This document shows positions 50,220-64,000 of a DNA stretch of 64,000 bases, in pieces. Each line of letters opens with the position of its first letter. The first letter of the stretch is position 1. The notes beneath the pieces are model-generated. The model worked only from the letters and a program-made list of their open reading frames with translations, searched no databases and was not told the origin of the DNA. The DNA comes from Pseudomonadota bacterium (lineage in GTDB: Bacteria > Pseudomonadota > Gammaproteobacteria > Burkholderiales > Thiobacillaceae). The stretch spans positions 62,001-126,000 of the forward strand of contig JAKBJA010000117.1 of the NCBI GenBank assembly GCA_021836225.1. Direction: 5' to 3'. Position numbers and translations under genes: made by a program.

Positions 50220-50256
50220 TCCGCTTTCCTTTTCGGGCGAGTATTTCGCCCCCCTG

Positions 50257-50320
50257 TGCCGAGGAGCGCTGCGACGGTTTACCCGCCAGGCTCGGTATAG
50301 GCGATGTTCCAACGGCGCTC
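50257..50320 (+). ncRNA. S-adenosylhomocysteine (SAH) riboswitch
   Basis: It matches the SAH riboswitch seen upstream of ahcY in betaproteobacteria. Core segment CCGAGGAGCGCTGCGACGG, then CCCGCCAGGCTCGG, then CAACGGCGCTC. P1 pairs CCGAG (50259-50263) with CTCGG (50291-50295), and the pseudoknot pairs GAGCGC (50264-50269) with GCGCTC (50315-50320). SAH binding turns ahcY on so that the inhibitory by-product of methylation is removed. The gene it controls starts 65 bases after the last paired base. Confidence 0.92.
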
Positions 50321-50355
50321 GTTGACTTGCAGCTGGGGCTGCGGCCAAACGAGCG
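50316..50355 (+). promoter_or_regulatory. Alternative hairpin that competes with the SAH riboswitch pseudoknot
   Basis: CGCTCGTT (50316-50323) is a perfect complement of AACGAGCG (50348-50355), with an inner GCAGC/GCTGC stem. The first strand overlaps the pseudoknot strand GCGCTC, so the two folds cannot form together. This is the likely expression platform: SAH frees the downstream leader. There is no U tract, so control may be by Rho or by structure rather than intrinsic termination. Confidence 0.65.
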
Positions 50356-53444: not shown

Positions 53445-54560
53445 TCAGGCCAGGCAGGCTTTAAGCGCCTTCAGGCAATAGTCGACGTTTTCCTGCTTAG
53501 CGGAATAGCCCATCAGGCCGATGCGCCAGATCTTGCCGGCCATGTCGCCAAGGCCGGCGCCGATTTCCAGGTTGAACTCGTTCAGCAGGCGGGCGCGGAT
53601 CGCCGCCTCGTCGACGCCTTCGGGCACGTAGATCGAGTTGAGCTGCGGCAGGCGGGCGGATTCCTCGACCACGTATTTCAAGCCCATGGCTTCGAGGCCA
53701 GCCTTGAGTTTTTCGTGCATCGCCCGATGGCGCGCCCAGGCATTTTCCAGGCCCTCTTCTTCCAGGATCACCAGCGATTCGTGCAGGCCGTACATCGGGT
53801 TGATCGGCGCGGTGTGGTGGTAGGTGCGCTTGCCGGCGGACTGCCAGTAGCCGAGCACCAGATTGAGGTCGAGGAACCAGCTTTGCACGGCGGTGGTGCG
53901 CGCCTTGATGCGGGCGATGGCGCGTTCCGAGAACGACACCGGCGACAGGCCCGGCGTGCACGACAGGCATTTTTGGCTGCCCGAATAGGCGGCGTCGATG
54001 CCCCACTTGTCCAGGTGGACCGGCGTACCGCCGAGGCTGGTGACGCAGTCCATGATGGTGAGTGCACCGAACTCCTGCGCGATCTTCGCCAGCGTCGCGG
54101 CGTCCGACTGTGCGCCGGTCGAGGTTTCGGCATGGACGAAGGCGAGCACCTTGGCATCGGGATTCGCCTTGAAGGCGTCGCGCACTTTCTGCGGATCGAC
54201 CGGTGCGCCCCAGGCGTCGTCGACGATCACCGGCACGCCGCCGGTGCGCTTGACGTTTTCCAGCATGCGGCCGCCGAACACGCCGTTGCGGCAGACGATC
54301 ACCTTGTCCCCCGGTTCCACCAGGTTGACGAAGCACATTTCCATCCCCGCCGAGCCGGGCGCCGAGACCGGGAAGGTCAGCGCGTTCTCGGTCTGGAACG
54401 CCATGCGCAACATGGACTTGATCTGCTCCATCAGATCGACGAAGGCCGGATCGAGGTGGCCGATGGTCGGGCGCGCCATGGCGTCGAGCACGCGCTGCGG
54501 CACGTCGGAGGGGCCGGGGCCCATGAGGATGCGCTTGGGGGGGATGAAGGAAGCCGTCAT
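53445..54560 (-). CDS. Class V aminotransferase (alanine/serine-glyoxylate aminotransferase-like)
   Basis: A 371-residue PLP enzyme. Substrate/cofactor-region motifs: RILMGPGPSDVPQRVLDAMA, RPTIGHLDPAFVDLMEQIKS, VSAPGSAGMEMCFVNLVEPG, VLAFVHAETSTGAQSDAATL, IMDCVTSLGGTPVHLDKWGI, and the Schiff-base Lys in AAYSGSQKCLSCTPGLSPVS. Ends with the conserved IGLMGYSAKQENVDYCL. Serine- or alanine-glyoxylate aminotransferase is the best match, part of glyoxylate/photorespiratory-type metabolism; a (S)-ureidoglycine or pyruvate transaminase cannot be excluded. No neighbour helps to decide. Confidence 0.85.
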   Translation of the reverse strand: MTASFIPPKRILMGPGPSDVPQRVLDAMARPTIGHLDPAFVDLMEQIKSMLRMAFQTENALTFPVSAPGSAGMEMCFVNLVEPGDKVIVCRNGVFGGRMLENVKRTGGVPVIVDDAWGAPVDPQKVRDAFKANPDAKVLAFVHAETSTGAQSDAATLAKIAQEFGALTIMDCVTSLGGTPVHLDKWGIDAAYSGSQKCLSCTPGLSPVSFSERAIARIKARTTAVQSWFLDLNLVLGYWQSAGKRTYHHTAPINPMYGLHESLVILEEEGLENAWARHRAMHEKLKAGLEAMGLKYVVEESARLPQLNSIYVPEGVDEAAIRARLLNEFNLEIGAGLGDMAGKIWRIGLMGYSAKQENVDYCLKALKACLA

Positions 54561-54646
54561 AACCTTGGTCTCTGTGTGGAAAATATCAACTAAAACAAAG
54601 GCTTGATTCTACTGGCAAACGGTGGCGCCAGGAATCGTGCAACTAC

Positions 54647-55501
54647 TCAGACGGGTGGCTCGCCCATCAGCGGCCGCATCGCCGTCAACAGGCTGTTGAA
54701 GATGCGCGGGTGGGCCTTTTCCTGCTCGGCCAGCATCTGCTTCATCGCGTAGCGCTGCTGCGGCTTGGCGAAGCACGCCGGGCAGTTCTCGAAGATCACC
54801 GGCAGGCCGGCGTCGGCGGCGAAGGCGCGGGTCTGGCGTTCGCGCGCGTAGGCGAACGGCCGGATGATGCGCAGGTCGCCGGCATCGTTGAGGTAGTGCG
54901 GCGACATGGTCCTGAGCTTGCCGCCGAACAGCATCGACATCATCAGCGTTTCGGCGAGGTCGTCCAGATGCTGCGCCAGCGCGACGACGTTGCAGCCCTG
55001 CTCGCGTGCGACGCGGTAGAGGATGCCGCGCCGCATGCGCGAGCAATAGGCGCAGTATGAGTCGCTGTCCTTGGTCAGCGTCTTCTGCGCCTCTTCCAGA
55101 ATCGGTTGCGACTCCAGGAAATAGGGCACGCCGAGCGCGGCCATGTAGGGCTTGAGCGGCGAGGGATCGAACTGGTCGGATTGCGGGTCGACCGTGCAGG
55201 CAAGCAGCTCGAATTTCACCGGGGCTTTCTGCTGCAGATGGTGCAGGGTATGCAGCAGCGACAGCGAATCCTTGCCGCCCGACAAGCCGAGCAGGATGCG
55301 GTCGCCTTCGCGGATCATGTGGAAGTCGCCGATGGCGCGTCCGGCCGCGGTCAAGAGCGAGCGGGAGGGTCTCACCCACCCTGTGTCCGTTCGTGCTGAG
55401 CCTGTCGAAGCATGGGCGGACACAGGGCCTTCGACGGGCCTGTCCTGAGCCTGGTCGAAGGGCTCAGGCCGAACGGCGCTTGGGTTCGATGTTTGGCTCA
55501 T
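54647..55501 (-). CDS. ttcA: tRNA 2-thiocytidine biosynthesis protein TtcA, with inserted palindromic repeat
   Basis: A 284-residue PP-loop enzyme that thiolates C32 of tRNAs. The ATG at 55501 overlaps the msbA stop (ATGA). PP-loop SGGKDS at residues 74-79, iron-sulfur cluster Cys150 and Cys153 (SYCAYCSRMRRGILY), Cys240 and Cys243 (ENCPACFAKPQQR). Residues about 9-39 (VRPEPFDQAQDRPVEGPVSA followed by HASTGSARTDTG) are not TtcA-like: they are encoded by a palindromic repeat. The conserved domain starts around LLTAAGRAIGDFHM. Confidence 0.93.
   Translation of the reverse strand: MSQTSNPSAVRPEPFDQAQDRPVEGPVSAHASTGSARTDTGWVRPSRSLLTAAGRAIGDFHMIREGDRILLGLSGGKDSLSLLHTLHHLQQKAPVKFELLACTVDPQSDQFDPSPLKPYMAALGVPYFLESQPILEEAQKTLTKDSDSYCAYCSRMRRGILYRVAREQGCNVVALAQHLDDLAETLMMSMLFGGKLRTMSPHYLNDAGDLRIIRPFAYARERQTRAFAADAGLPVIFENCPACFAKPQQRYAMKQMLAEQEKAHPRIFNSLLTAMRPLMGEPPV
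55387..55476. repeat. Palindromic repeat element inside the ttcA reading frame
   Basis: CCGTTCG (55387-55393) and CGAACGG (55470-55476) are its outer inverted arms. Inside are GCTGAGCC/GGCTCAG and nested CTTCGAC/GTCGAAG pairs. The 90-base unit has the sequence character of the dispersed GAGCCTGTCGAAGG-type repeats of many proteobacteria. Being a multiple of three with no stop in the ttcA frame, it adds about 30 residues without breaking the gene. Confidence 0.8.
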
Positions 55502-57240
55502 GCGGAAAACTGCAGCGCGTGCAGTTGCGCGTAGCGGCCCTTCCGGGCGATCAGGTCGGCGTGGCTGCCGACTTCGACGATGCGGCCGCCTTCCAGCACG
55601 ACAATCCGATTGGCGCGTTCGATGGTGGAGAGGCGGTGCGCGATGACCAGCGTGGTGCGGTTCTCCATCAGCGTCTCCAGCGCGGCCTGCACGTGGCGCT
55701 CGGATTCGCTGTCCAGGGCGGACGTGGCTTCGTCGAGGATCAGGATGGGCGCGTTCTTGAGGATGGCGCGTGCTATTGCAATTCTTTGGCGCTGCCCGCC
55801 CGACAGCCGCATGCCGTTCTCGCCGATCAGCGTGTCCAGCCCGTCGGGCATGGCCTGGATGAAATCCCAGGCATGCGCGGCGATACAGGCGGTGCGGATC
55901 TCGTCGGGCGTGGCGTCGCGCTTGCTGCCGTAGGCGATGTTGTGCCCCAGCGTGTCGTTGAACAGCACCACGTCCTGCGATACCAGGGCGATGTGGCTGC
56001 GCAGGTTCTGCAGCCGGATGTCGTGGGTGTCGATGCCGTCGAGCTGGATCGAGCCGGAATCCGGGTCGTAGAAGCGCGGCACCAGATTGGCCAGCGTGGT
56101 CTTGCCCGAGCCCGAGGCGCCGACCAGCGCCACCGTTTCGCCGGGCGCGATGTCGAGCGTGATGCCGGCCAGCGCCGGCGTGGCTTTGCCGGGATAGGTG
56201 AGTGTCACGTCGCGCAGCGCCAGCCGCCCTTCGGTGCGGGGGAGGGTGCGGCTGCCGCTGTCGCGCTCGGCGTCTTCGTCGAGCATGGTGAAGATGGTCT
56301 CGGCGGCGGCCAGCCCGCGCTGCAGCTGGTCGTTGACCGAGGTGAGCCGTTTCAACGGCGCGAACAGCAGCAGCATGGCCATGAAGAAGGCGACGAAGCC
56401 GCCGACCGTGGTGGCGTTGTCGCTCGCCTGGTCGGCGGCGATGTAGACAATGACGGCGAGCGCAATCGCGGCGATCAGCTGGATCACGGGTTCGTACACC
56501 GCGTTGGCGGCGACGCGCTTCATCTCGAACAGCCGCGCCAGGTTGGCGGCCTGGCGGAAGCGCGTCTGCTCGTAGTCCTCGCCGCCATACAGCTTGACCA
56601 CGCGATGTCCGCCCACCGCCTCGTCGACCACCTGGGTGATTTCGCCGATGTTCTGCTGCGCCTTGCGCGAGAGTCCGCGCAAGCGCTTGCTGGCAACGCG
56701 CACCACCCACAGCGTGAGCGGCACCAGCGCGAACACGATCAGGGTCAGCTTCCAGTTCAGCCACAGCAGATAGCCGAGCAGTCCCAGCACCGTCACCGTG
56801 TCGCGCACCAGCGTGGTGAGCGAACTGGTGGCCGATTGCGTCACCTGGGTGACGTTGAACGCCAGCTGCGCGATCAGCTGGCCGCTCGGGTTCTGGTCGA
56901 AGTAGCGCGTCGGCAGCGTCATCAGCTTGTCGAACATGGCCGCACGCAGATCCATCACCAGGCGGCTGCCCACCCAGGCCATGCAGTAGGTGCTGACGAA
57001 GCTGGTGATGCCGCGCACGATGAAGAGCCCGAGCAGCAGTATCGGCACCCAGCGGATGAAGGCCTGGTCCTTGGCGACGAAGCCCTTGTCCAGCAGCGGC
57101 TTGAATAGCGCGGGCAGCGCGGGTTCGGTGGCGGCGGTGAGGACCAGCGCGACGATGGACAGCGCGAACATGCGCCAGTAGGGCTTCACATAGCCGAGCA
57201 GGCGGACGTACAACTTATGGCTGTGGTCGGCAGGCGTCAT
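55498..57240 (-). CDS. msbA: Lipid A export ATP-binding/permease protein MsbA
   Basis: A 580-residue ABC half-transporter flipping lipid A-core across the inner membrane. Six helices (from KPYWRMFALSIVALVLTAAT onwards), then ATPase: Walker A VALVGASGSGKTTLANLV, signature RLSGGQRQRIAIARAIL, Walker B ILILDEATSALDSESE and H-loop LVIAHRLSTIERANRI. Start at MTPADHSHKLYVRLLG where it overlaps the 49-residue ORF; a longer frame upstream runs through that ORF and is rejected. Together with the LpxL pair elsewhere in the window it concerns lipopolysaccharide. Confidence 0.93.
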   Translation of the reverse strand: MTPADHSHKLYVRLLGYVKPYWRMFALSIVALVLTAATEPALPALFKPLLDKGFVAKDQAFIRWVPILLLGLFIVRGITSFVSTYCMAWVGSRLVMDLRAAMFDKLMTLPTRYFDQNPSGQLIAQLAFNVTQVTQSATSSLTTLVRDTVTVLGLLGYLLWLNWKLTLIVFALVPLTLWVVRVASKRLRGLSRKAQQNIGEITQVVDEAVGGHRVVKLYGGEDYEQTRFRQAANLARLFEMKRVAANAVYEPVIQLIAAIALAVIVYIAADQASDNATTVGGFVAFFMAMLLLFAPLKRLTSVNDQLQRGLAAAETIFTMLDEDAERDSGSRTLPRTEGRLALRDVTLTYPGKATPALAGITLDIAPGETVALVGASGSGKTTLANLVPRFYDPDSGSIQLDGIDTHDIRLQNLRSHIALVSQDVVLFNDTLGHNIAYGSKRDATPDEIRTACIAAHAWDFIQAMPDGLDTLIGENGMRLSGGQRQRIAIARAILKNAPILILDEATSALDSESERHVQAALETLMENRTTLVIAHRLSTIERANRIVVLEGGRIVEVGSHADLIARKGRYAQLHALQFSA

Positions 57241-57386
57241 GGCAGCAGGGAGGCGAGTCCGGGGAAGGTGAAGATGCCCGTGCTGTCGGGGAGGGCAGTG
57301 AGCAGTACCGACGCGCCGATGGCGGGTTCGCGCTTCACGCGTTCCTGAATCAGGTCCTGCGACGGGTTTTCGGGGTTTTCGGTCAT
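57237..57386 (-). CDS. Possible 49-residue protein translationally coupled to msbA
   Basis: MTENPENPSQDLIQERVKRE followed by PAIGASVLLTALPDSTGIFT, ending LASLLP. Its stop overlaps the msbA ATG (ATGA), the same coupling used by most genes in this genome. No family is recognised; there is no signal peptide or membrane helix. It may be a real small protein or only a leader ORF setting msbA translation. Confidence 0.4.
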   Translation of the reverse strand: MTENPENPSQDLIQERVKREPAIGASVLLTALPDSTGIFTFPGLASLLP

Positions 57387-57554
57387 GGGGCGGATAGTGA
57401 AAAGCCCCGCGATTGTAACGCGCCGCGCTTGGCCGGCGTCGATTCTGTCGGGATGGGCCCCTCGGTTCGGGGTTCCCGGCGGGGCGGCATTTTGTCGCCC
57501 ATTCGCGGTCTGCAGCCGTGCCCTGAATGAGTCGTCGAGCGTAGAATACGCGCC

Positions 57555-58919
57555 ATGTCGGAACCCATCGATCCGCGCCCGCGCGCACAGAACCAGTTGG
57601 AGCAGCACCTCAGCGAGGTGCAGCTGCTGCTCGCGCGCCAGCGGCGCGTCGAGACCCTGGTGCAGAAGCAGGACATGCCGCGCCACGAGCTGGTCGAAGG
57701 GCTGGTGCACCGCCAGCATCTGGTCGAACTGCACAACCTGCTGCGCCGCCTGTCGGCCGGCGAGATCGCGCGCGTCATCGAGGCCTTGCCGGAGGAAGAC
57801 CGCCTCGCCGCCTGGCAGGAGGTCGAGGAAAGCCGCTGCGAACTGGTTCTGGAAATCGTGTCGGACGACGTGCGAGCCGAACTGCTGGAGGCGCGCCCCC
57901 ACAGCAGCGCGCGCAACATGCTCTCGGCGTTCGAGCTGAAGAACGGCCGGCTGAGCCAGGTGCGCATCGACAGCCGCGCCGACCTGGCCAACGTCAACCC
58001 GATGTGGATCGACCTCGTCGCCCCCACCGCAAGCGTGCGCGCCTGGGTGGGCGAGTTCTTCCAGCTCTATCTGCCCGACCCGGAGGACGTCACCGACATC
58101 GAGGAAAGCGCGCGCTTCTATGTCGACGACAACGATGCGGTGCACATGAGCTCGAACTTCCTGCTCGACAAGCAGGGCGATTCGCGCAACGTCCCGGTGG
58201 CCTTCATTCTCCACCGCAACATCCTGTTCTCGGTGCGCAACGAGGAACTGCCGGTGTTCCGCCTGCAGCGGCTGCGCGCCCGCACCCAGCCAGGCTATGT
58301 CTCCGACGGCAAGGACGTCCTGCTCGACCTCTATGGCGCCGACGTCGAATACTCGGCCGACGCGCTCGAGGATGTCTACGCCGAATTCGAGCGCGTCGGC
58401 CGCCAGGTGCTGTCGCCGCAGGTCACCGACGACGAGGCGGCTGAAATCCTCGCCGAGATCGCCAAGGGCGAGGATTTGAATGGCCGCATCCGCCGCAACG
58501 TGCTCGACACCCGCCGCGCGCTTTCCTTCCTGATGCGCGGCCGCCTGCTCTCGACGGAACAACATGAGGACGCACGGCAGATCCTGCGCGACATCGAGTC
58601 GCTCGACGGCCACACGTCCTTTCTCTTCAACAAGATCAACTTCCTGATGGACGCCACCGTCGGCTTCATCAACATCAACCAGAACAAGCGCGTGTCCAAG
58701 TTGACCGCGATTTCCATCGTGTTCGTGCCGATCAACATCATCGCCGGCATCGGCGGCATGTCCGAATTCTCGATGATGACCGCCGGCATCCCGTGGCCGA
58801 TTTCCTACGGCGCCTTCACGCTGGCGATGGGCGCGCTCGGCTTTGGCACCTATCACGCACTGCGCTACTTCGAACGGCGCAAGCCGCAGACTGCGGAGCG
58901 GGCGCGCAGGGAAGGCTGA
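57555..58919 (+). CDS. CorA-type divalent-cation transporter with MgtE-like N-domain, no GMN
   Basis: A 454-residue protein. Residues about 40-110 (LVHRQHLVELHNLLRRLSAG, EIARVIEALPEEDRLAAWQE) look like an MgtE_N cytoplasmic domain; the rest is CorA-like: DLVAPTASVRAWVGEFFQLY, LPDPEDVTDIEESARFYVDD, long helices (LRDIESLDGHTSFLFNKINF), and two C-terminal helices around VSKLTAISIVFVPINIIAGI. The selectivity motif GMN is replaced by GMS (GGMSEF). Magnesium transport is likely by family, but the altered motif leaves the ion uncertain. It is monocistronic, divergent from the msbA run. Confidence 0.82.
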   Translation: MSEPIDPRPRAQNQLEQHLSEVQLLLARQRRVETLVQKQDMPRHELVEGLVHRQHLVELHNLLRRLSAGEIARVIEALPEEDRLAAWQEVEESRCELVLEIVSDDVRAELLEARPHSSARNMLSAFELKNGRLSQVRIDSRADLANVNPMWIDLVAPTASVRAWVGEFFQLYLPDPEDVTDIEESARFYVDDNDAVHMSSNFLLDKQGDSRNVPVAFILHRNILFSVRNEELPVFRLQRLRARTQPGYVSDGKDVLLDLYGADVEYSADALEDVYAEFERVGRQVLSPQVTDDEAAEILAEIAKGEDLNGRIRRNVLDTRRALSFLMRGRLLSTEQHEDARQILRDIESLDGHTSFLFNKINFLMDATVGFININQNKRVSKLTAISIVFVPINIIAGIGGMSEFSMMTAGIPWPISYGAFTLAMGALGFGTYHALRYFERRKPQTAERARREG

Positions 58920-59218
58920 CGTCTCGCGCCACCATGCGAGGTCGTCTCGCGTGGATGCAATTCAAGACAGTACGACCATTGCACTCTCCATCGCGGCGGG
59001 CGGGATGCATGTTGTCATGCTCGCGAATACAGCCGTGCGAGTGTCGGAAGCAGAGAGCAATGCAAGAAAATGCCGGTGGGTCATAGCTGCCGAGTCTCGA
59101 GGAAAGTAGCGGCTTATGCGGGCATAAGACTAACGTTGTATTGACAAAACCGGGCGCGAAAGAGACAGTCCCCAAAAATCCAAGCGCAATGCTGGAAATT
59201 ACAAAAGGAGGGGGAGGG
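58920..59218. other. Low-information gap at the left edge of the accessory segment
   Basis: No gene is convincing here. It holds a 7-bp inverted repeat CTTATGC/GCATAAG with a 2-base spacer (59113-59128) and a TTGACA at 59141 without a clear -10. No tRNA, integrase remnant or attachment repeat is visible. The base composition turns less GC-rich toward the right. Confidence 0.5.
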
Positions 59219-59398
59219 ATGTACCGGATGCTCAACGCGCACAGGGCGGCAACAGCGCACGCCTACGGCGGCCATGCCGTCTTCGTGAGGTGGATTACGG
59301 GTTCCGCGCCATGTGCGCATTCAGAACACGCTGAAGAAGGCTTGCCGGCCTTCGTTGCCGGCGCGAACGACAACCCTTCCCTATCTCCTTCCGCTTAG
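59219..59398 (+). CDS. Possible 59-residue protein with a very strong ribosome site
   Basis: ATG at 59219 is preceded by AAAAGGAGGGGGAGGG, an extended match to the anti-Shine-Dalgarno at good spacing. The product starts MYRMLNAHRAATAHAYGG and ends VAGANDNPSLSPSA; it has no recognised family. It stops 20 bases before the J-like gene and so may be its upstream partner or leader. Only the ribosome site supports it. Confidence 0.4.
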   Translation: MYRMLNAHRAATAHAYGGHAVFVRWITGSAPCAHSEHAEEGLPAFVAGANDNPSLSPSA

Positions 59399-59418
59399 CA
59401 TTCGGTCGCTATTTCGCC

Positions 59419-60111
59419 ATGGAAAACAAGAGTCTTTATACGGTCTTGGGGATTCGGCCCGAAGCTTCCCAAGATCAAATCGAGGCCGCCTACGCGGCAA
59501 TCCTGGAGCAGCTCAAGGAGGGAACCAATCCCAACCCGAACGCGGATGACCGCGTCCGGCTCATCGCTGCCAAAGAAGCCTACGAAATCCTGTCCAACCC
59601 CGTCAGGCGCCAACAATACAATCAGAAAATTTTTGCGCCCCAGACCGTGGACGTGCCGCAGGCCATCGTGATCGAGCAGGCCGAAACATGGACGATTTCC
59701 AAAGTGCTGGTCGTTGGCCTGATCGTGCTCGCTGCAATTGGGGTCTATGGCTACACGACCACGCAGCGGGAGCAACTTCGTCTGGCTCACGAGAAGGAGG
59801 TCGCAGATGGCCAGGCGAGGCTTGAACAGGAAAGGTTAGAGCAACAGAAAGCCATGATGGCGCAACAAGCCGAGCGTGAGCGGCAGGCTGCGGATCAGGC
59901 GCTGCGGAACCAGGCAATCCGAGAGTCCGACGCGATCAGCATGCGACTGCGTCAGGAGGCCATGGAGAAGCAGCGTCAGGAGCAGTACCAGCAAATGCGC
60001 GACGACGCAGCGCGACGCCAGCAATTGGCAGAGGCGCAACAACGAGCGCTGCGAGAAAAGCAGACGCTGCAGTGGGTCGAAAACGAGAATCGCAGGAATC
60101 GCAGGTATTGA
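59419..60111 (+). CDS. Membrane-anchored J-domain-like protein lacking HPD
   Basis: A 230-residue protein. Residues 1-70 read like a DnaJ helix II/III region (SLYTVLGIRPEASQDQIEAA, YAAILEQLKEGTN, RLIAAKEAYEILSNPVRRQQ YNQ) but the HPD tripeptide that activates Hsp70 is absent. A membrane helix lies near residues 93-113 (ISKVLVVGLIVLAAIGVYGY). After it comes a long, highly charged coiled coil rich in Gln, Arg and Glu (EQERLEQQKAMMAQQAERER), ending basic. It may scaffold rather than stimulate a chaperone. It is the last plus-strand gene before the reverse transcriptase operon. Confidence 0.7.
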   Translation: MENKSLYTVLGIRPEASQDQIEAAYAAILEQLKEGTNPNPNADDRVRLIAAKEAYEILSNPVRRQQYNQKIFAPQTVDVPQAIVIEQAETWTISKVLVVGLIVLAAIGVYGYTTTQREQLRLAHEKEVADGQARLEQERLEQQKAMMAQQAERERQAADQALRNQAIRESDAISMRLRQEAMEKQRQEQYQQMRDDAARRQQLAEAQQRALREKQTLQWVENENRRNRRY

Positions 60112-60379
60112 GTTCGAATGCTGGTGAGGGTGCCCAGCGATGTCGACCTCAACGCAATCCACCGAACTTGGCTGGTACAGTCGCGATGGTCGTCTTTTCG
60201 GCCTAAGCAGTCACCCACACAGCAATCGAAGAGGACCGCTTAAAGCTGCGAACTGCCTTTCACTTCCGACAACCGCAAGACTGCTGCGATCGGAAGCTGT
60301 CCATCGATGAAAGTTTCATAGACAAACCCAGCAGTAGCCGGTGCGATAGGCAATCATCATTCTGTAATGCTGGTCTGTG
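60112..60379. other. Gap between the J-like gene and the reverse transcriptase locus
   Basis: No supported gene. It holds a 7-bp stem CTTCCGA/TCGGAAG (60263-60269 with 60290-60296) with an inner CGCA/TGCG pairing. Together with flanking bases it has the look of a degenerate dispersed intergenic element. A 56-codon frame at 60140-60310 is not convincing. There is no U tract, so the stem is not an obvious terminator. Confidence 0.4.
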
Positions 60380-60555
60380 AAGGTCATCTCTACTAAGAGA
60401 CGAATGCGTAGGCGCTGCCGGACGCGATCAAGACGGGTGGATAAGACGGCCCGCTCCTACCGTCTGGTTACTCAACCCCCAATTGATATAGGGGAAGAGT
60501 GGGCGCTTGTGTGTGGGCTGCCAACAGCCATTAAGGGTAAAGCGGAGCGCCGAAG
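60380..60555 (-). ncRNA. Candidate DRT3 non-coding RNA with a CACACACA template motif
   Basis: Starts immediately after the stop of the distal RT gene, same strand. Read on the minus strand: GGCGCU (60551-60546) pairs perfectly with AGCGCC (60507-60502). Enclosed are a GGCUG-UUGG-CAGCC hairpin (60529-60516) and, directly after it, CACACACA (60515-60508). Further stems follow: AGACGG/CCGUCU (60465-60444) and UCUCU/AGAGA (60400-60387). An ACACAC segment displayed next to a stem is the known template of the DRT3 RNA. The ends are guesses; no terminator U tract is present. Confidence 0.72.
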
Positions 60556-62628
60556 TTAATATACCTCGCGGCTGCGCTTCGCGTCTAGCTCTTTCCCGAG
60601 ATCGAATTTATCGCCCCAGGCAGTAAACCATTGATCGTTGGAAGACTGAACAGACAAGAGGCCAGCTGCATCCAGGCCAAAAATCTGCCCGATGCTGTCC
60701 TTTGTGGCGGAGCTGATGTAAGGACAAACCACGAGATCTAGCAGCAAGATTAGCGTTTCGGCGTCATTGGGGCAGTGGGCCTTCATATATTCGAGTTTTG
60801 CGATGATGTGTGCTTCCACGAAGGCCTTCAACTTCGCATAGCGAACCTTATCTTTTATATAGGACAGAAGGGTCGTGATCGAAAAGTGGCTCATGAAGCC
60901 CACCGGACGAACATAATCACCTGTGCCACCATCCTCCTCGATCAAGAAATGACGGAGAAGGACGGAAACTGGCAACCAATATTCCCGGCCGATCTGCAAT
61001 AGGGAAATGAGCAGGTAGAGGCTCTCGACTTCGCGATGAACGCTCATCGTATTCTTTTCGAGCTGTTGCATCACGTTGTCGTGGACGTACTTAAACAGCA
61101 GGTGTTTCAGCTCATATGGCAGGCCCTGCGCATGCATAAAGTCCACGGAGGTCGCAATCATCCGGCAGAGGCGGATTGTGTGATTGACCTTCGGGCTCGC
61201 CGAGTACGCGAAAAAAGCAAACTCAATGATCGCGAGCAGGGCATTAGAGAGGCGCTTACGATCGCGATCTGACTTGTCGCACGCGACATAGGCTTTGAAG
61301 AGCTTCTCGATCTTATTCTCAGCTATGGCGAAGGTGTAATTCAGCAGATCGCCATAGGTGACACCTGCCTCCTTGATGGCGGACTTGTACCGGATGATCA
61401 AACGGTTCGCATTTATGGCGCAGACTAGGTTCTGCTTGGGCGGCTTGGAGGGATCGGCCATCGACTCCTCCTCACACACCGGATCGATCTCGTCATTGAG
61501 AAAGGTCGAGATACGCTCTTTGGCGATCGTAATTTCGGTGATGATCGGCTTTTGATAATGCTTGATTTTCGCCGTATTGATGCTCAGCTTTTTGGACTTA
61601 AGGATCTCCTGGAGCGTCTCGAATATCTTTAACTGCGTGGACTCCTTGTTGTAGAAAACGAAGAAGTCATCCACGTACCGGAAAATTTCATAATCGATCT
61701 TGTGGATCAGATTTTCTCCAGCGGCCAATTTCGTGATCAGTTCCGCATCGACCGACTGCAAAATGATCTCGGCGAAAATCCGAGAAAACTCCGGACCAAT
61801 GACGATGCCGTTGGTCTCTTTATGATTCAGGTTTTGCATTAGGGCATCAAACCACCCCCCGAAGGTAGCCTTCGATTCCGCCAGACTGAATTTTGTCTGA
61901 TCCTTGCCCAGAACGGCCCAAGGCAGCGAGTGAGTGTAGATGCTATCAAAGCACTTGCTCACATCGATCTGCACCATCGCATCGTATTTCTTCTCGCTGC
62001 GGTGGTATTCGTGCGATTCAAAAAAGCGATGGATGTTCCGGTATTTTTGGTACACAAAATAGGACCCGAGCTGCTCGTACTCCCGGTCTTCCTCCTCCAC
62101 CCCTGCAACAGCGTCCAAGCGCTCTTCATGGAGCTTGTCCTTGAAGTAAGCGTAGCGCGACACCGACACCGGACGGCGTATCGAAAACTCGCTGACGGAC
62201 GTGTGGTATATGATCAGCGCGCTGTGCGTTGCGTAGAAGCTTGCCACGTCAACCTGATTGCGTGGATGCACGACGCTCAGCGTGCGTCCATCAAGACTAT
62301 GAGCAACACGGAAATTGAAAGGGATGGTCGCCATCTGGCATTTGCCGATGGGCACGGAGCGGCGCGTTTTCTGCTTACCCCATTCAGTTACAACCTCAAC
62401 CGTGATCACGACCTTGGGGTCGATCCCGAACAGTAGCCGCATTGTCCGGTCGAGATCGGTCGTCTCGCAAATCCAGCGCAACTGGCCCTTTTCGATCTCG
62501 ATGCTGTTGTTTCTTAAGAAGCGATAATAGCCCCGATTGGAGAATGTCGGAGGCACCTCGAACGGCAGCATGTCCGTCAGCACAGCCCTTTGCTTCCTGT
62601 GAGTGAGCGAGACGCGCCGCTTAGCCAT
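60556..62628 (-). CDS. drt3b: Defence-associated reverse transcriptase, UG8/Drt3b-like
   Basis: A 690-residue RT. Motif A is VQIDVSKCFDSIYTHS (Asp222), motif B region NGIVIGPEFSRIFAEIILQS (about 273-292), motif C RYVDDFFVFY (Asp320, Asp321), with later FETLQEILKSKKLSINTAKI (motif D/E area). There is a long N-terminal extension (residues 1-215), and a C-terminal half of about 300 residues that is alpha-helical (FAYSASPKVNHTIRLCRMIA, LYLLISLLQIGREYWLPVSV). The gene starts by an 8-base overlap with the first RT. GC is far below the chromosome. UG8 in DRT type 3 is the best match by organisation and motif type. Confidence 0.8.
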   Translation of the reverse strand: MAKRRVSLTHRKQRAVLTDMLPFEVPPTFSNRGYYRFLRNNSIEIEKGQLRWICETTDLDRTMRLLFGIDPKVVITVEVVTEWGKQKTRRSVPIGKCQMATIPFNFRVAHSLDGRTLSVVHPRNQVDVASFYATHSALIIYHTSVSEFSIRRPVSVSRYAYFKDKLHEERLDAVAGVEEEDREYEQLGSYFVYQKYRNIHRFFESHEYHRSEKKYDAMVQIDVSKCFDSIYTHSLPWAVLGKDQTKFSLAESKATFGGWFDALMQNLNHKETNGIVIGPEFSRIFAEIILQSVDAELITKLAAGENLIHKIDYEIFRYVDDFFVFYNKESTQLKIFETLQEILKSKKLSINTAKIKHYQKPIITEITIAKERISTFLNDEIDPVCEEESMADPSKPPKQNLVCAINANRLIIRYKSAIKEAGVTYGDLLNYTFAIAENKIEKLFKAYVACDKSDRDRKRLSNALLAIIEFAFFAYSASPKVNHTIRLCRMIATSVDFMHAQGLPYELKHLLFKYVHDNVMQQLEKNTMSVHREVESLYLLISLLQIGREYWLPVSVLLRHFLIEEDGGTGDYVRPVGFMSHFSITTLLSYIKDKVRYAKLKAFVEAHIIAKLEYMKAHCPNDAETLILLLDLVVCPYISSATKDSIGQIFGLDAAGLLSVQSSNDQWFTAWGDKFDLGKELDAKRSREVY

Positions 62629-63967
62629 GTTTCCATGCCCTCACGATCATCTGCAACTCTCTCGTGCTGAAATTATGATACCGGCGTTGCTCAAAGCCAG
62701 TGGTGAATTTGAGCTTTTTCAACTGCTTTTGCAGGCTGGTCCGCTTGAGTTCCGCAATGCGCGTCTTGAGCCGCTTATCGAGCAGTTCAAAGCTCGACAA
62801 GTCGGTCACGATCGAATTGTTGAAGTATATGCCGGTGACCGCGCATGACTTGCTGTTGGATAGGCGGGTATTGCCCGTCAGGAATTTTACGCGGCCGACC
62901 AGCTTTCTGAATGCACCCTTCGGGTTAACCGGCTTCTCCTGCCAATAGTCCGCGAACGCGGCATCCAGCCGCGTACGATATTTCGCCACCTTCGCTGCGC
63001 TCGGGCTAATTTCAAACTGCCCCGGTTTGAGGAGGAAGCGATAACCCAGATACTCAAACTTCTTCGGATCAGTGTCGGCCAGCTTGAATTCAAAGGTTTT
63101 GGCCGCGTTGTGCATGAGCCCGTTGTCGCCGAAGATCAAGATGATCATGTCCTTGAACGAGCCAAGGTCTTTGCCAATTGGCGGTCGCGCAAACACGGCC
63201 ACGATATCATCGACAAACCGGCAATATAGGACCAAGCCGGGGATCGCCCGGATCTTCTTGTCCACAGGCCTTAGATACAACTCAGCCAGATATGCGCTGA
63301 TGCCAACGCCCCGGGGAATGCCGGTTGTGGCGCCGGAGATCACGCCGTATGAGTCCAGCACCTGCTTGATGTATTTCTTTGAGGCGGGACTCAATAACTG
63401 GTCGCGATCCAGCTTTTCGACCAAGCGCTTGCGGTCGATGCTCTCATAAAATGACGAGATGTCGGTGCGGACTAGCTCGAAAGGAAAATTGCTACCGAGC
63501 ATGTCGCGAAGTTGGCAGACTAAGTCGTGACGGTTAGCCTGTTTGACACCGTAGATGCGATGGATGTTACGCTGGAGCTGCTTGATAACGAAGAAGGTCT
63601 CAGGCTCCGCGTCGATGCAGAAAACCGGCTTTCCCTTCGGCCCGGTCTTTTGGGAAAGGACGATCTTGAAACTTGGCTTGAGAATCTTCTGACTGATGTC
63701 ATCCATCAGGGCATCGATGGCGGATGACTTATCTGTTTTCAAGGTAACTAGTTCAGCCTTCAACGCATGCAACTTCGTCTCGAAATCGTCAGCCGTCAGT
63801 GTGGCTTTGACTTTCCGTAGATCACGAATGTCCTGCACCTTGTCGCGTACAGCGAGCGTGAACGGTTCGAGAGTCGGGAAATAGCGGGTTGCCAAGTCGA
63901 CACCCTTACGGTTCTCAGCATCATAGATGCGACGGAAGTTCTCCGCGGTGAACATTTGATCTAGCAT
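62621..63967 (-). CDS. drt3a: Defence-associated reverse transcriptase, UG3/Drt3a-like
   Basis: A 448-residue RT (ATG at 63967; GTG one codon earlier also possible; an in-frame TGA lies 24 bases upstream, so the 5' end is complete). Motif A VRTDISSFYESIDRKRLVEK (Asp169), motif B GIPRGVGISAYLAELYLRPV, motif C YCRFVDDIVAVF (Asp253, Asp254), motif D/E FEFKLADTDPKKFEYLGYRF. The N-terminal 100 residues are helical. There is no integrase, maturase or Cas1 domain. It is probably the RNA-templated partner of the following RT. Only 33 bases of upstream sequence remain, so its promoter is outside the window. Confidence 0.8.
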   Translation of the reverse strand: MLDQMFTAENFRRIYDAENRKGVDLATRYFPTLEPFTLAVRDKVQDIRDLRKVKATLTADDFETKLHALKAELVTLKTDKSSAIDALMDDISQKILKPSFKIVLSQKTGPKGKPVFCIDAEPETFFVIKQLQRNIHRIYGVKQANRHDLVCQLRDMLGSNFPFELVRTDISSFYESIDRKRLVEKLDRDQLLSPASKKYIKQVLDSYGVISGATTGIPRGVGISAYLAELYLRPVDKKIRAIPGLVLYCRFVDDIVAVFARPPIGKDLGSFKDMIILIFGDNGLMHNAAKTFEFKLADTDPKKFEYLGYRFLLKPGQFEISPSAAKVAKYRTRLDAAFADYWQEKPVNPKGAFRKLVGRVKFLTGNTRLSNSKSCAVTGIYFNNSIVTDLSSFELLDKRLKTRIAELKRTSLQKQLKKLKFTTGFEQRRYHNFSTRELQMIVRAWKHG

Positions 63968-64000
63968 CACTGACGATTCATTCCATTTGATTCAGTTCGG

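What the first reader, a model, noticed from the sequence alone, without database searches (positions are those of the whole stretch)
60380..63967. A complete-looking DRT type 3 antiphage system: two adjacent reverse transcriptases and a candidate RNA
Two RT genes on the same strand overlap by 8 bases: a 448-residue RT with FVDD and a 690-residue RT with YVDD, both with intact catalytic aspartates. Neither has intron maturase, Cas1 or retron features. Established knowledge: DRT type 3 consists of a UG3 RT, a UG8 RT and a non-coding RNA and protects against phages. The order (shorter RT first, longer RT second), sizes and lack of accessory nuclease fit this system. Composition is strongly different from the core chromosome (28/60 GC at 61561 versus 44/60 at 57601), indicating horizontal acquisition. 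The homolog in this betaproteobacterium appears to be an accessory insertion.
Basis: partly seen in the sequence, partly recalled or inferred. Interest (0 to 1): 0.95.

Follow-up and report, generated by a model that had tools for sequence, protein, structure and literature searches.

The report
DRT3 antiphage twin reverse transcriptases
This bacterial DNA carries two open, neighbouring reverse transcriptase genes and, just behind them, a predicted structured RNA with the template ACACAC: a DRT3 system of a known kind, likely acquired from another bacterium, that would stop phages by making repetitive double-stranded DNA that kills the infected cell.

Summary
Both proteins pass NCBI's curated Drt3a and Drt3b models with about twice the required score. 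The catalytic, base-selecting and priming residues named in the DRT3 literature are present. In this clade ACACAC lies 40-42 nt behind the drt3b stop in 32 of 32 loci with downstream sequence, and every helix of the predicted RNA has at least one compensated base pair. Eleven of 11 more distant annotated loci counted, and 17 of 23 prophage-type loci examined, also carry ACACAC within 400 nt; the six exceptions are four interrupted genes and two relatives without drt3a. The operon has 52% GC against 65% before it, and synteny with the closest genome found ends at the corA stop: an accessory island. It is a new member of a known, recently explained kind. New here: a covariation-supported RNA model for this clade, which Rfam lacks, and a candidate pseudoknot. 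Expression, DNA product and defence were not tested.

The parts
62621..63967 (-). drt3a, UG3-type reverse transcriptase, 448 aa, FVDD at residue 251, RTDIS (first catalytic Asp) at 167
   Evidence: NCBIfam NF041747.1 409.7 bits, cut-off 200; PADLOC Drt3a 2.1e-123; PDB 9z6y chain A 5.1e-24; motif positions
60556..62628 (-). drt3b, UG8-type reverse transcriptase, 690 aa; E24, R115, D222, R283, YVDD 318-321, terminal Y690
   Evidence: NCBIfam NF041748.1 718.5 bits, cut-off 350; PADLOC Drt3b 5.4e-200; PDB 26cz and 9z6y; residues
62621..62628 (-). 8-base overlap of drt3a and drt3b
   Evidence: coordinates; 8 bases in 20 of 27 related loci, undetermined in 7 where the alignment stops one residue short
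60429..60555 (-). predicted DRT3 RNA (model R1, 127 positions; the true ends are not known)
   Evidence: alignment of 32 loci; covariation; model match 149.3 bits, next best in the window 7.7 (the window is one of the model's sequences)
60509..60514 (-). ACACAC, presumed template of Drt3a
   Evidence: 41 nt behind the drt3b stop; 40-42 nt in 32 of 32 loci of the clade with downstream sequence
60546..60551 (-). P1 5' strand (GGCGCU), pairs with 60502-60507; closes the template loop
   Evidence: 99.0% of cells paired, 1 of 6 pairs with a compensated change
60502..60507 (-). P1 3' strand (AGCGCC)
60516..60529 (-). hairpin P2, ends one base before ACACAC; presumed template boundary
   Evidence: 100% of cells paired, 1 of 5 pairs compensated
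60471..60499 (-). hairpin P3
   Evidence: 97.9% of cells paired, 7 of 9 pairs compensated
60444..60465 (-). hairpin P4 with 8-nt loop
   Evidence: 100% of cells paired, 4 of 7 pairs compensated
60539..60545 (-). candidate pseudoknot 5' strand (CCGCUUU), pairs with the P4 loop at 60451-60457
   Evidence: 223 of 224 cells paired in A2; 7 of 7 pairs with 4 double changes in L043; counts on A4
60451..60457 (-). candidate pseudoknot 3' strand (GGAGCGG, loop of P4)
58920..64000 (.). accessory region: begins after the corA stop; contains a DnaJ-domain frame and the DRT3 operon; right border outside the window
   Evidence: GC drop; collinearity with G717 ends at 58919

Best explanation
This locus encodes a DRT3 system, two open reverse transcriptase genes plus a predicted structured RNA carrying ACACAC, that likely defends its host by making poly(TG)/poly(CA) double-stranded DNA which kills phage-infected cells. 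By analogy with the E. coli system, Drt3a would copy ACACAC again and again into poly(TG); hairpin P2, one base from the 5' end of the template, would stop it from reading further, and P1 would hold the loop. Drt3b would start a DNA strand on its last residue, Y690, and pick A and C in turn with E24 and R283 and no nucleic acid template. The strands would anneal, be kept low by RecBCD-type nucleases in healthy cells and accumulate when a phage blocks those nucleases, causing abortive infection. Shown here: the genes, their residues, conservation and covariation of the RNA, accessory status. Inferred: expression, DNA product, trigger and defence.
For: Curated equivalog models for both proteins and PADLOC profiles. 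Solved DRT3 proteins are the best sequence matches in the PDB. E22, R71, R241 and Y666 of the E. coli protein (PMC13174585) correspond to E24, R115, R283 and Y690 here, and all nine positions checked are identical in 120 of 120 listed close homologues. ACACAC behind drt3b in 32 of 32 loci of the clade, in 11 of 11 distant annotated loci counted and in 17 of 23 viral-collection loci examined, against 0.07-0.13 per 400 nt expected. Compensated pairs in every helix. Two relatives that lack drt3a (L076, L079) also lack ACACAC.
Against: No expression, product or phage data exist for this copy; the promoter is outside the window. The host's nucleases were not examined. The R1 model finds 4 of 12 distant loci (L043, L049, L052, weakly L032) and, on the right strand, 2 of 18 viral loci (L057, weakly L059), so the RNA fold is clade-specific beyond the ACACAC motif. 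Rfam has no matching family. No tree of UG reverse transcriptases was built.
Confidence: 0.95

Rival explanations
1. The locus is a silent DRT3 copy: open in sequence but not expressed, or not working with this host.
For: Interrupted DRT3 copies exist among relatives: L028 has a frameshifted drt3b and L072, L073, L074 and L077 have early stops. No promoter can be checked.
Against: Both frames are open and all checked residues are kept; the RNA helices are intact.
Confidence: 0.1
2. The two reverse transcriptases belong to other UG families or to a retron or group II intron and stand together by chance.
For: Both match the general reverse transcriptase domain and, weakly, intron and retron models.
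Against: Score margins of about 310 and 509 bits over the next PADLOC family; intron and retron models far below cut-off; the same pair with an 8-base overlap recurs; template RNA behind it.
Confidence: 0.01
3. The apparent pseudoknot is really an alternative long-range helix that replaces P1 and P4, so the RNA switches between two folds.
For: The minimum-energy fold of the window RNA pairs these two regions and opens P1 and P4; L049 also folds with long-range pairing.
Against: P4 itself is compensated in 4 of 7 pairs and fully paired in all 32 sequences, and L043 keeps both P4 and the 7 long-range pairs. A switch would also need both, so the two readings are not separated by covariation alone.
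Confidence: 0.3

Closest known systems
E. coli DRT3 (Drt3a UG3 + Drt3b UG8 + ncRNA; PMC13174585, PMC13314766; PDB 9z6y, 26cz)
   Same: Gene order, both protein families, catalytic and gate residues, terminal priming tyrosine, downstream RNA with ACACAC in a loop.
   Different: Drt3b is 28-39% identical to the four E. coli proteins aligned and has 690 residues against 667. The RNA has its own helices around the shared template, including a candidate pseudoknot; the published covariance model was built from EcoDRT3-related RNAs and was not at hand to test.
DRT3 of E. coli GYB01 type (L049, 680 aa Drt3b)
   Same: Shares the core CCCTTAATGGCTGTTGGCAGCC-CACACAC around P2 and the template.
   Different: Different P3 and P4; the pseudoknot does not form in the same register.
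DRT10 and DRT9 (one class 2 reverse transcriptase with a template RNA)
   Same: RNA-templated synthesis of repetitive DNA by a UG reverse transcriptase (abstracts and passages).
   Different: One reverse transcriptase instead of two; no protein-templated partner.

Membership tests
DRT3 | UG3-type reverse transcriptase (Drt3a) | tested here: met
   NCBIfam 409.7 bits, cut-off 200; PADLOC 2.1e-123
DRT3 | UG8-type reverse transcriptase (Drt3b) directly behind it | tested here: met
   NCBIfam 718.5 bits, cut-off 350; PADLOC 5.4e-200; 8-base overlap
DRT3 | Catalytic aspartates in both | tested here: met
   FVDD and RTDIS in Drt3a; D222 and YVDD in Drt3b
DRT3 | Base-selecting residues E22 and R241, helper R71 (E. 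coli numbering) | tested here: met
   E24, R283, R115 by alignment to 26cz and across loci
DRT3 | C-terminal priming tyrosine (Y666) | tested here: met
   Y690, last residue; 120 of 120 listed close homologues
DRT3 | Downstream RNA with ACACAC template in a loop | tested here: met
   Motif 41 nt behind the stop, enclosed by covarying helix P1; expression not tested
DRT3 | Match to the published ncRNA covariance model | not tested
   Model not held; Rfam has no matching family
DRT3 | Placement in UG3 and UG8 in a tree | not tested
   Profile margins used instead
DRT3 | Synthesis of poly(TG) and poly(CA) | not testable with these tools
   Needs biochemistry
DRT3 | Protection against phages | not testable with these tools
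   Needs plaque assays
retron | Retron-type reverse transcriptase | tested here: not met
   NCBIfam retron_St85_RT 26.6 and 21.0 bits, cut-off 235
group II intron | Maturase-type reverse transcriptase with intron RNA | tested here: not met
   TIGR04416 57.5 and 52.0 bits, cut-off 300; only Rfam match at gathering score in the window is an SAH riboswitch

The most novel reading that the evidence does not exclude
In this widespread DRT3 clade the template RNA is a pseudoknot: the strand behind the template-closing stem pairs with the loop of the 3' hairpin P4, building a telomerase-RNA-like core in which hairpin P2 sets the template boundary and the pseudoknot lets Drt3a slip back and re-read ACACAC.
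Probability: 0.35. Interest if true: 0.5.

Novelty: new member of a known kind. Interest (0 to 1): 0.32.

Why it matters
DRT3 is the system in which a protein, not a nucleic acid, sets the sequence of one DNA strand. This locus and its relatives show both halves of that rule, the RNA template ACACAC and the Drt3b gates E (or D) and R, travelling together in a clade only 28-39% identical to the E. coli proteins aligned here, in hosts named as alpha-, beta- and gammaproteobacteria and on phage-type contigs. Among the loci counted, none with open drt3a and drt3b lacked the motif. The RNA model gives a way to find and annotate this clade's RNAs, which Rfam does not cover, and the candidate pseudoknot makes the question of how Drt3a re-reads its template testable.

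Tried and rejected
Retron, group II intron and other UG families: rejected on profile scores. Another template or other base-selecting residues: looked for and not found among DRT3 loci. At position 24 only E or D was seen in proteins with a residue there: D in 27 of 120 homologues of the Vibrio query and in L045, L063, L072 and L073. L048 has N at the R115 position. L079 has Q and H at the gates but no drt3a and no ACACAC and is not counted as DRT3. Host genome: none is held. Promoter- and terminator-like sites near the RNA (2 and 3 found, 0.7 and 0.5 expected) are not used as evidence. Relatives on plasmids are at most 40.6% identical, phage records hold none that covers 80% of the query, and the 9-kb DNA query matched plasmids only outside the operon. 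In a sample of 398 genomes of the phylum, 2 had Drt3b at 1e-40, one of them the genome (G001) used as the centre. Rows dropped before counts: L025 (cut at its contig end), L033 (E. coli plasmid, drt3b annotated in two pieces), L038-L041 (other views of loci already held), L054, L055 and L056 (same contigs as L042 and L058), L080 (short match). L043 was counted apart.

Against the pseudoknot: L049 pairs in 2 of 6 positions with letters. L058 lacks P2 and does not pair in this register by eye. The window's single-sequence fold differs. In print: 'DRT3' together with 'pseudoknot' is in 2 papers of the library. In the DRT10 preprint PMC12632851 the passage concerns telomerase RNA (passages seen). 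The DRT2 paper PMC12596737 was seen as a listing with the start of its abstract. The word does not occur in the main texts of PMC13174585 and PMC13314766. The structure paper of Deng et al. (Science 2026), known to me only through PMC13314766 and PMC13213688, was not seen, so the contact may already be visible there.
Full report
What is there. At the right end of the window two open frames lie on the minus strand, 62621-63967 (448 aa) and 60556-62628 (690 aa), overlapping by 8 bases. In 27 related loci where I placed drt3a by tblastn, the overlap is 8 bases in 20; in the other 7 the alignment stops one residue short of the end, so the overlap is not determined. The first protein passes NCBI's curated Drt3a model (409.7 bits, cut-off 200), the second the curated Drt3b model (718.5 bits, cut-off 350). 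PADLOC agrees, with the next family about 310 and 509 bits behind. Among solved structures the best sequence matches of Drt3b are 26cz and the Drt3b chain of 9z6y, and of Drt3a the Drt3a chain of 9z6y. An AlphaFold2 model of Drt3b (mean pLDDT 84.7) matches DRT6, DRT4, UG15 and AbiK best (TM-scores normalised by the query 0.39-0.55 among the first twelve rows). That library ends in April 2026 and its listed rows show no DRT3 chain.

Residues. In E. coli DRT3, E22 and R241 of Drt3b select A and C, R71 helps, and Y666 is the primer. This is from PMC13174585, of which I read the abstract, parts 1-2 of 3 of Results, the Discussion, the ncRNA modelling section, part 1 of 2 of the legends, and passages. 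By alignment with 26cz and across loci these are E24, R283, R115 and Y690 here. PMC13213688 (passages) names Glu26 and Arg253 for the other solved Drt3b, the same two places in the alignment with 9z6y. In 240 listed homologues of a Vibrio and a Bacteroides query, R283 is kept in 240; position 24 is E in 207, D in 27 and a gap in 6; position 115 is R in 235 with 5 gaps; Y690 is kept in 230 with 10 gaps; the last D of YVDD is N in 7.

The RNA. The literature places an RNA with an ACACAC template downstream of drt3b (PMC13174585; PMC13314766, abstract and part 1 of 2 of its DRT3 section). In the window ACACAC lies 41 nt behind the stop codon. It lies 40-42 nt behind the stop in the window, in L042 and in 30 of the 31 loci; the 31st, L025, is cut at its contig end. 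In 11 of 11 more distant annotated loci counted (L032, L034, L044-L052; several closely related to each other; L033 was left out) it lies 42-221 nt behind the stop. The background was 0.066 per 400 nt in ten of those loci.

A Drt3b profile found 25 loci in the viral collection, and 23 were examined. ACACAC follows within 400 nt in 17, all of which keep the C-terminal tyrosine and R283, and E or D at position 24 except L075, which starts inside the gene. Of the six others, L072, L073, L074 and L077 have interrupted frames and carry ACACAC 311-1200 nt past the matched part; L076 and L079 have no detectable drt3a and no ACACAC. drt3a was also not found for L067 and L075, whose loci begin inside drt3b. 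The background there was 0.13 per 400 nt.

RNA structure. The alignment of 32 loci (A2) gives 27 predicted pairs in four stems, 13 of them with changes on both sides that keep the pair. With the candidate pseudoknot added, 14 of 34 pairs do, against 4.1 in shuffles; 99.2% of cells pair, against 39-56% when partners are slid. P1 rests on one compensated pair (L018) and has two rows with one broken pair. A covariance model (R1) finds the window RNA with 149.3 bits, next best place 7.7 (the window is part of the model). Loci outside the model: of 12 distant loci it finds L043 (50.3 bits), L049 and L052 (27.0 each) and weakly L032 (15.2), and misses 8. Of 18 viral loci given to it, it finds L057 (112.2, same contig as L053) and weakly L059 (15.4), plus two minus-strand chance-level matches in L061. 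Rfam has no match in 60250-60700 up to E=1.

Candidate pseudoknot. Columns 11-17, right behind the 5' strand of P1, are complementary to the loop of P4 (columns 102-108). In A2, 223 of 224 cells pair, with one compensated pair, and 11 to 31 of 500 shuffles reach the five observed values, so A2 alone is modest. With L043 and L049 added (A4), 5 of 7 pairs have double changes against 0.5 in shuffles, and 97.9% of 237 cells pair. A4 was fitted to R1, which holds P4 but not the pseudoknot. Against it: L049 pairs in 2 of 6 positions with letters, and one of the A4 double changes comes from L049 itself. L058 lacks P2 and shows no such pairing by eye. The single-sequence fold of the window RNA pairs the same two regions but opens P1 and P4 (z-score -2.06).

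Where it sits. The operon has about 52% GC against 65.0% (SD 2.1). The 31 loci are 67-92% identical over the best segment and are titled as alpha-, beta- and gammaproteobacteria (classes recalled from the names), with one small contig binned as Pedosphaera. Neighbours include phage-type integrases (L003, L013, L029) and a type I restriction subunit (L007). Two E. coli loci have an integrase just before drt3a and genes annotated ogr/Delta and phage polarity suppression behind drt3b, which I read as P4-like satellites. Of 399 genomes of one order, 212 match the corA stretch; the closest, G717, is 93% identical over 1520 bases. G717 is collinear with window 53445-58919, ending at the corA stop. 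It then has two frames without Pfam match and the core genes mtgA, aroE and glnA (aroE by Pfam, mtgA and glnA named by me from their sequences). None of these three is found in the window. In G273 and G533 a mtgA relative lies directly before corA instead, so this neighbourhood is rearranged in the group and no clean empty site was seen. No Drt3b match was found in the three genomes (without a positive control, as the tool warns). I read this as an island inserted behind corA whose right border is outside the window.

How it most likely works. By analogy with E. coli: Drt3a copies ACACAC into poly(TG); Drt3b makes poly(CA) from Y690 with E24 and R283 in the role of a template; the strands anneal; RecBCD keeps the product low; phage inhibition of RecBCD lets it build up and the cell dies (PMC13174585 abstract and Discussion). 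Each step is inferred for this copy.

Verdict. The added value is the RNA model of the clade and the candidate pseudoknot.

Noticed in passing
L050 3970-6009 (E. coli CFSAN064035): Drt3b ends in a different C-terminus without the priming tyrosine in the aligned place and looks frameshifted against L051; 12 E. coli records give the same match statistics, only this one was read.
   Followed up: partly
L072, L073, L074, L077: drt3b is interrupted by an early stop, yet ACACAC is still found downstream of the remnant.
   Followed up: partly
L058 5121-5230: A DRT3 locus whose RNA seems to lack hairpin P2, with ACACAC only 24 nt behind the stop.
   Followed up: partly
L061 4595-4685, minus strand: Weak match of the RNA model (13.4 bits, E 0.15) on the strand opposite drt3b, likely chance.
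   Followed up: no
P0121-P0240: Seven listed homologues of the Vibrio Drt3b have N instead of the last D of YVDD, for example P0217.
   Followed up: no
L091, 12153-13076 and 11686-12219, + strand: Two accessory frames without Pfam match sit behind corA in the closest genome found, where the window has its island: perhaps an insertion hot spot.
   Followed up: partly
window 59419-60111, + strand: 230-aa frame with an N-terminal DnaJ domain (Pfam 38.7 bits, cut-off 27.8) between corA and the DRT3 operon.
   Followed up: no
window 50255-50327, + strand: SAH riboswitch, 61.9 bits, gathering score 37.
   Followed up: no
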